DNA of 64,000 nt from Lucifuga dentata (lineage: Eukaryota; Chordata; Actinopteri; Ophidiiformes; Bythitidae). A program made the translations under genes and the position numbers. Shown here one piece after another: positions 58,307 to 59,467 of this stretch. Location: positions 1-64,000 of the forward strand of contig VXCM01001293.1 in NCBI GenBank assembly GCA_014773175.1. Reading direction: 5' to 3'. Below the pieces are notes generated by a model, which saw only the letters and a program-made list of their open reading frames with translations, made no database searches and was not told where the DNA came from. Every line of letters starts with the position of its first letter. Position 1 is the first letter of the stretch.

Positions 58307-58555
58307 GTAAACTATCAGTTATTTCCACTGGTGGCGGCATGTGCTCAGTTCTTCTACTGCAATGAATAATGCATCGAAAGACATTCAGCAGCTGTGTGAT
58401 TACAACCAGCCTGCATGTGCTGCACATCAACCCTTTGGACTCTGAGTCCATAACTTGATGTCATTCCTCCCTCACTGTATTTGTTAATGTTGTGCTATTC
58501 CAATGATTTTCCCTAGAACATGACAAAATGGATAGATCTCAGTTTCCGCTTATAT

Positions 58556-59020
58556 TTAAAGGATCATATTGGTGGTTTTGCATGTTTGACCTGCATACAT
58601 GTTACATTACTTTGAACCATTTTCTAAAACATACTTCTGGATCGGTAACTTTTCAAAAAGTTTTTCCTACCTTCTAGATAGACAGCCATTGGTTTCAATT
58701 CATTCCGGTACGCTTCTAAAATCAACTTGTAGAGACTTGAAACATGCCTGAGATACCTAATTCATTACAGCGAACAATATGTGGTTTTAATTTTTTGTCA
58801 GTTTCTTAATTTAACTGGTCCAATGCAGAGCTGCATTGAAGAAAATGTATCTCTATACCAGGACTGCCTTTTACACAGAAATGATTGAGCGTAACCGTTA
58901 GCAGGTGAAACATTGAATTTTAAGGTGGATGTATCACTGAACATTTGGTTTTGAAAGAATATGGAATTTGGCAAAATAACACAAAAAATAAAAATGGTTA
59001 TATGTTTTGGAAAATGTATT
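58556..59020. mobile_element. TTAAAGGACC inverted-repeat element, copy 5 (right end lost)
   Basis: Starts TTTAAAGGATCATATTGG with 'gcatgtttgacc'. It then shares 'tacattact', 'ccattggtttcaattcattcc', 'atcaacttgtagagac' and 'gcaggtgaaacattgaattttaaggtgg' with copies 1, 3 and 4. The right inverted end is missing where L1-like sequence begins. Confidence 0.7.
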
Positions 59021-59029
59021 TAATAATGT

Positions 59030-59400
59030 ATTTTTTTTTTGAACTTTTATTTTTAAAGAGAACTTTTACATTTTTATAAACAAAAAAGTAAACACAGAGA
59101 ATACACACACACACANNACTGAAAAACGTCCAGAATACGCAGTATTAAAAGTCCTGCTGATTGTAGACATCCCATTTCTTCCAATGTTTATCAGCTTCAG
59201 TTTTCTGAAGTCTGACAGTAAAAGTCATTTTCTCCACTGAACGTATAGAGTTTACCAAGTTTGTGAAGAGGCTGATGGTGGGGGGGATTCTTCTGAAGCC
59301 AACATTTGGTAATAGTTTTTTTACTTACAGCCATAAAGATCTTTAGAAGATATGAGTCACTTTTACTAAGACCTTTAGGGATGCTGCACTCGTTATTTTA
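59030..59400 (-). mobile_element. L1-like LINE 3' end, interrupted by an nn gap
   Basis: On the minus strand a frame reads MAVSKKTITKCWLQKN, then NLVNSIRSVEKMTFTVRL and ADKHWKKWDVYNQQDF with a stop, with a frame shift at a C-run. This is the C-terminal tail typical of fish L1 ORF2 ('HWKKWDxY' ending). The 3' untranslated part runs to about 59030 with a GT tract and A-rich end. The two-base gap at 59116-59117 lies in that 3' part. Confidence 0.65.
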
Positions 59401-59467
59401 AGGATATGTATGTTATGAATGTAAGCGGTGAACCGTTTGGACTCAGCACAGAAAATACGAGCCTCAC

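What the first reader, a model, noticed from the sequence alone, without database searches (positions are those of the whole stretch)
58307..59467. Two unrelated genes both lose their continuation here: probable false scaffold join at the nn gap
kif2a enters from the left and has no exon after exon 2. The integrin enters from the right on the opposite strand and has no exon after GEFSGDGEE, although about half of its coding sequence should lie to the left. Between them lie a truncated inverted-repeat element and an L1 3' end containing the window's only two-base gap (59116-59117); all other gaps are single N. A join made through an L1 copy shared by two contigs explains both truncations. A true rearrangement breakpoint or a truncated integrin fragment in a kif2a intron is the alternative.
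Basis: partly seen in the sequence, partly recalled or inferred. Interest (0 to 1): 0.75.

Follow-up and report, generated by a model that had tools for sequence, protein, structure and literature searches.

The report
False scaffold join inside an L1
Two unrelated fish genes appear cut off at the same place because the genome assembly very probably glued two unrelated pieces together inside a repeated mobile element; this is an ordinary assembly error, not biology.

Summary
Window = bases 1-64000 of contig C1068 (82,757 b) of a 598 Mb, 8189-contig draft. kif2a exons 1-2 enter from the left; the human probe finds no later exon to the contig end. Exons 1-8 of an itga5-type integrin enter from the right and splice into one open frame; no exon 9+ was found in the 59.4 kb to the left. 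The missing parts lie on other contigs: kif2a exon 4 onward on C7094 (or a paralogue on C5798), an itga5-type 3' part on C4767. The junction does not look like one L1 insertion between its two flanks: the left flank stops inside the right terminal repeat of another element, whose missing ~62 bp were not detected beyond; no target-site duplication was found; and L1 sequence is missing at the NN against 11 of 11 copies measured, by 73-81 bp in 9 of them. NN is the only two-base run among 65 N runs. A real L1-mediated rearrangement is not excluded (no reads; part of C4767 withheld), but is much less likely.

The parts
52929..52989 (+). kif2a exon 1 (MASGFGKIVVGTYVEIKRSD + split G)
   Evidence: tblastn with recalled human KIF2A, 74% over 19 residues; start codon, donor GTGAGT
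58212..58306 (+). kif2a exon 2, last kif2a exon found in the contig
   Evidence: 32 residues identical to recalled human KIF2A; acceptor ttttacag, donor gtaaac; the only place reported for residues 21-57 in the own genome
58556..59030 (.). inverted-repeat element, left end complete, right terminal repeat broken off about 62 bp early
   Evidence: alignment with 7 copies L002-L008; the L007 end matches 59003-59030 with its positions 1-29 of 92 and then stops; 54 matches in the own genome, window included, 40 of 9213 candidates scored
59031..59115 (-). L1-like 3' UTR and poly-A tail (poly-T on +), end of the left piece
   Evidence: matched in 11 of 11 other loci held, the best of 37 candidates; in L044 it lies displaced
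59116..59117 (.). NN: assembly gap, inferred join of two contig pieces
   Evidence: only two-base run of 65 N runs; no flanking overlap
59118..59383 (-). L1-like ORF2 3' end, 5'-truncated in this copy; start of the right piece
   Evidence: 98.9% to C5548:5886-6150; in 11 of 11 other loci held the match ends at window 59383; alignment of 10 of them
59468..59512 (-). itga5-type exon 8, last integrin exon before the join
   Evidence: 80% to recalled ITGA5, 87% to the paralogue on C2672; acceptor GCAG, donor GTGAGG
59957..60082 (-). itga5-type exon 7
   Evidence: best solved-structure matches are integrin alpha-5, E 7.8e-10
60214..60259 (-). itga5-type exon 6
61370..61431 (-). itga5-type exon 5
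62093..62216 (-). itga5-type exon 4
62624..62724 (-). itga5-type exon 3; exons 2 and 1 lie beyond the window at C1068 64851-64975 and 66662-66753 (exon 1 from FNLD on)
   Evidence: exon 2 best matches integrin alpha-5, E 8e-15

Best explanation
An assembly chimera. Shown: two gene-bearing pieces meet at 59116-59117 inside an L1-like retroelement, neither gene is found to continue in the contig, and later parts of both gene types lie on other contigs. Inferred: one L1 copy sits in kif2a intron 2, inside the right terminal repeat of an inverted-repeat element, and a second, closely related copy sits in itga5 intron 8. Contigs broke within each L1, and scaffolding joined the 3' tail of one copy to the ORF2 end of the other, writing NN. 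In the animal, C1068:1-59115 should continue toward kif2a exon 3+ (then C7094 or C5798) and the reversed C1068:59118-82757 should continue into itga5 exon 9+ (C4767).
For: kif2a residues 153-550 on C7094 and 186-550 on C5798, with kif2a exon 4 about 0.54 kb from the C7094 end that should face exon 3; a C7094 motor exon matches KIF2A best (E 4.6e-38). itga5-type residues 618-1008 on C4767 in the expected orientation. The other pieces of this integrin class found by the ITGA5 probe score as itga5 (C2672, hits from residue 1 to 1008), itga8 type (C63, C69) and itgav type (C5473). The terminal repeat broken at 59030 is not detectably completed beyond the L1: a profile of 10 repeat ends has no hit in 59330-59600. 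At the exact junctions the best target-site-duplication score is -2; 197 of 300 random pairs scored higher, 44 the same. L1 sequence is missing at the NN against 11 of 11 copies: 73-81 bp in 9, 58 for C5548, 330 for L044. NN is unique among 65 N runs.
Against: Both L1 pieces share variants with the same closest copy (C5548) and lie in the order and orientation of one element, as one real element would. The right flank aligns collinearly but weakly with the missing terminal-repeat tail: 52-176 of 500 shuffles (lax scoring) and 28-236 of 500 (strict) score as high; the best case, L005 strict, 28 of 500 and 9 of 166 contig windows. The profile also did not list the 28-base remnant at 59003-59030, so it can miss short or diverged remnants. 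kif2a exon 3 was not found anywhere, and two kif2a paralogues compete as partner. One C4767 exon (residues 870-906) scores better with ITGA8 and ITGAV than with ITGA5. Part of C4767 was withheld, so a separate 5' half there is not excluded. Some true L1 insertions lack target-site duplications (recalled).
Confidence: 0.88

Rival explanations
1. A real rearrangement in the sequenced fish: ectopic recombination between two L1 copies joined the 5' part of kif2a to the 5' part of an itga5 paralogue, facing each other, breaking both genes.
For: Two L1-like copies of one subfamily would be a natural substrate; the absent target-site duplication and the uncompleted terminal repeat are equally expected; both genes have a paralogue that could buffer the loss.
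Against: The join coincides with an N gap, and L1 sequence is missing there. No reciprocal junction (itga5 exon 9 - L1 - terminal repeat - kif2a exon 3) was seen, though this could not be fully tested. Contigs of this draft break inside other genes too: itga8-type parts on C63 and C69, C5798 starting within its kif2a paralogue.
Confidence: 0.06
2. Genuine adjacency: one L1 inserted in a long kif2a intron that also hosts an itga5 gene, the rest being lost in gaps.
For: L1 pieces in one order and orientation; the weak collinear alignment of the right flank with the terminal-repeat tail.
Against: kif2a intron 2 would exceed 24.4 kb and hold an itga5 5' part and a pyridine-nucleotide oxidoreductase gene; itga5 exons 9+ would have to lie left, where kif2a, an unc45-type and a PIP5K-type gene lie; no target-site duplication, terminal repeat not detectably completed.
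Confidence: 0.04
3. A truncated, duplicated integrin fragment lying in a kif2a intron.
For: A second itga5 with hits from residue 1 to 1008 exists on C2672.
Against: Six exon pieces of C1068 (of eight exons) are only 61-87% identical in protein to C2672, so it is an old paralogue, not a recent copy of that gene; eight exons splice into one open frame; and an itga5-type 3' part exists on C4767.
Confidence: 0.02

Closest known systems
Repeat-mediated scaffold mis-join (chimeric scaffold) in draft assemblies (general knowledge)
   Same: Two unrelated loci meet at a gap inside a dispersed repeat; genes on both sides lose their continuation, of which parts are found on other contigs.
   Different: Nothing essential; read-level proof is lacking here.
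Gaps inserted between overlapping contigs, as reported for SOAPdenovo2 (PMC5368935, passages seen)
   Same: N sites with exact copies of at least 50 bp on both sides (25 of 65) fit contig overlaps that were not merged.
   Different: The NN site has no overlapping flanks and two N instead of one. Which assembler made this draft is unknown.
L1-mediated ectopic recombination (recalled, no paper consulted)
   Same: Breakpoint inside L1-like copies of one subfamily.
   Different: Breakpoint falls on an N gap with missing L1 interior; no reciprocal product seen.

Membership tests
chimeric scaffold (false join) | genes on both sides truncated at one junction | tested here: met
chimeric scaffold (false join) | missing continuations present elsewhere in the assembly | tested here: met
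   kif2a exon 4+ on C7094, or the paralogue on C5798; itga5-type 3' part on C4767. Not found: kif2a exon 3. Not read: itga5 residues 247-617 on C4767
chimeric scaffold (false join) | junction at an N gap within a multi-copy repeat | tested here: met
   55 matches of the L1-like stretch in the own genome, window included, 37 candidates scored; NN at 59116-59117
chimeric scaffold (false join) | no reads, mate pairs or contacts support the join | not testable with these tools
   no read data
single L1 insertion with both flanks | target-site duplication | tested here: not met
   exact junctions; a broad scan was at chance level
single L1 insertion with both flanks | host sequence interrupted on one side resumes on the other | tested here: not met
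   no profile hit for the terminal-repeat remainder (limited sensitivity to short remnants); weak collinear alignment near chance level
single L1 insertion with both flanks | poly-A tail at the 3' end | tested here: met
   poly-T at 59031-59040
L1-type non-LTR retroelement | dispersed copies sharing ORF2 end, short 3' UTR and poly-A | tested here: met
   303-codon open frame in C5548
L1-type non-LTR retroelement | recognised reverse transcriptase or ORF2 domain | tested here: inconclusive
   Pfam gave 0 families for the C-terminal pieces; the reverse transcriptase part was not examined; the name L1 rests on recalled resemblance

The most novel reading that the evidence does not exclude
The join is real: ectopic recombination between two young L1-like copies in this fish lineage rearranged the chromosome and simultaneously broke one kif2a and one itga5 paralogue, both buffered by old duplicates.
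Probability: 0.06. Interest if true: 0.45.

Novelty: not a real feature. Interest (0 to 1): 0.1.

Why it matters
As biology it is ordinary. It matters for users of this assembly: two gene models (kif2a and an itga5 paralogue) are falsely truncated, a false kif2a-itga5 neighbourhood is created, and 25 of 65 N sites examined are flanked by exact copies of at least 50 bp that can mimic small tandem duplications.

Tried and rejected
Reading the join as one L1 insertion with target-site duplication: not supported. Remainder of the inverted-repeat element in the right flank: a weak collinear alignment was not confirmed by a profile of 10 ends. A recent integrin duplicate: rejected by 61-87% protein identity to C2672 over six exon pieces. 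Composition as a sign of a join: G+C in 2 kb steps does not change clearly at the junction. A first attempt to splice the integrin exons used wrong limits for exons 3 and 5 and showed a stop; with corrected limits the frame is open. Literature on kif2a-itga5 synteny in fish: no paper of the library holds all four terms searched; two hold kif2a, itga5 and zebrafish and are unrelated by title (listing only). Assembly papers were seen as search listings only, except passages of PMC5368935. Naming the L1 by Pfam failed. kif2a exon 3 was not found.

Full report
WHAT IS THERE. The window is bases 1-64000 of contig C1068 (82,757 b) in a 597.9 Mb assembly of 8189 contigs. On the left, on the + strand, are kif2a exon 1 (52929-52989) and exon 2 (58212-58306), with GT/AG splice sites; the 32 residues of exon 2 are identical to recalled human KIF2A. 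I extended the sequence to the contig end: tblastn finds no later kif2a exon in the 24.4 kb to the right. On the - strand from 66,753 to 59,468 lie eight exons of an alpha integrin that splice into one open frame of 721 nt, every intron GT...AG, exon 1 counted from FNLD (a first try with wrong limits for exons 3 and 5 showed a stop). Summed tblastn scores favour ITGA5 over ITGAV and ITGA8 (346.9, 282.7, 207.2; the ITGA8 probe lacks the N-terminal part), and solved-structure searches rank integrin alpha-5 first. Of the remaining three quarters of the protein (human residues 247-1008) the 59.4 kb to the left give only chance-level matches. Other genes on the left are unc45-type and PIP5K-type, and a pyridine-nucleotide oxidoreductase lies near the right end.

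THE MISSING PARTS. With recalled human KIF2A, the own genome gives residues 153-550 on C7094 (14,618 b, minus strand, pieces of 71-97% identity) and residues 186-550 of a second copy on C5798, which begins inside the gene; residues 21-57 were reported only on C1068. Exon 4 lies at C7094:14010-14081, about 0.54 kb from the contig end that should face exon 3. A C7094 motor exon matches KIF2A best (4.6e-38 against 9.9e-34 for KIF2C). Exon 3 was not found. With recalled human ITGA5, the genome gives hits from residue 1 to 1008 on C2672, the 5' part on C1068, residues 618-1008 on C4767, and others on C63, C69 and C5473. Comparing probes on the loci held, C63 and C69 score best with ITGA8 where that probe covers them, C5473 with ITGAV, and C4767 with ITGA5 (149.9 against 142.0 for ITGA8 and 109.0 for ITGAV; 123.3 against 90.5 and 94.4), so C4767 is the remaining partner of C1068 by elimination, in the right orientation; one C4767 exon, residues 870-906, goes the other way (39.3 against 46.6 and 44.3). 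The solved-structure match of a C4767 exon is integrin alpha-5. Part of C4767 came back withheld, so its 5' end is unread and a separate 5' half there cannot be excluded. Six C1068 exon pieces are 61-87% identical to C2672, so the C1068 gene is an old paralogue and not a recent copy.

THE JUNCTION. From 58556 to 59030 lies an inverted-repeat element with 54 matches in the genome, window included (40 of 9213 candidates scored). The window copy follows the right terminal repeat for 28-29 bases and stops at 59030, where a poly-T begins, about 62 bp short; of 7 aligned copies four carry that end to its close, two in shortened form, one in part. Then comes the 3' end of an L1-like retroelement on the minus strand: poly-A and 3' UTR (59031-59115), NN, and the end of ORF2 (59118-59383), after which the window leaves the 11 other loci held. 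If one L1 had inserted here, a target-site duplication and the rest of the terminal repeat should follow at 59384. A profile of 10 terminal-repeat ends finds nothing in 59330-59600, although the same profile also did not list the short remnant at 59003-59030. The best duplication candidate at the exact junctions scores -2, below 197 and equal to 44 of 300 random pairs; an earlier broad scan was at chance level. A collinear alignment of the right flank with the missing tail is near chance level (28-236 of 500 shuffles strict, 52-176 lax) and, continued, would run into the exon. Measured against 11 other copies, the window lacks L1 sequence at the NN in all 11: 73-81 bp in 9, 58 for C5548 (which has an N and an A run there) and 330 for L044.

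THE N SITES. C1068 has 19 N runs: 18 single N and one NN. In 155,338 b of other held loci there are 46, all single (a first count on part of them gave 22 of 22). Of the 65, 25 (7 + 18) are flanked by exact copies of at least 50 bp; many of the others sit in homopolymers or short repeats. This fits contig ends whose overlap was not merged; PMC5368935 (passages) reports that SOAPdenovo2 inserts gaps between overlapping contigs. The NN has no overlap, follows a CA run, and looks like a different kind of join.

MECHANISM. Most likely two L1-like copies of one subfamily, one in kif2a intron 2 (inside the inverted-repeat element) and one in itga5 intron 8, broke the contigs, and scaffolding connected the wrong halves. 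The truncations, the gene parts on other contigs and the mismatched flanks are shown; the two-copy step is inferred. The name L1 rests on recalled resemblance, since Pfam gave no family for the C-terminal pieces. A true L1-mediated rearrangement would leave a similar footprint and is kept at 6%; against it, the break lies exactly on an N gap with missing L1 interior, in an assembly whose contigs end inside other genes too. No reads were available.

Noticed in passing
window 1420, 23955, 27153, 63561 (and C1068 73980, 78018, 82574): Single N flanked on both sides by the same exact 56-70 bp: apparently unmerged contig overlaps that look like small tandem duplications. 7 of 19 N sites here and 18 of 46 in other loci have exact flanking copies of at least 50 bp.
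   Followed up: partly
C63 45712-50391 and C69 about 4091-7070: Two itga8-type parts (residues 1-178 and 262 onward) lie on different contigs and look like one gene divided by the assembly.
   Followed up: partly
C5798 1-5652: A second kif2a-like gene starts inside its coding region at the contig end; its first exons were not reported anywhere by the KIF2A probe.
   Followed up: no
window 60401-61147, 61438-61985, 63744-64000: Dense minisatellites in introns of the itga5 paralogue: a 17-bp unit repeated about 44 times, an imperfect array reported with periods of 11-103 bp, and an array reported with periods of 21-53 bp.
   Followed up: no
C5548 5886-6150 (L035): The closest L1-like relative (98.9%) keeps a 303-codon open frame at the ORF2 end, which may mean a young family.
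   Followed up: no
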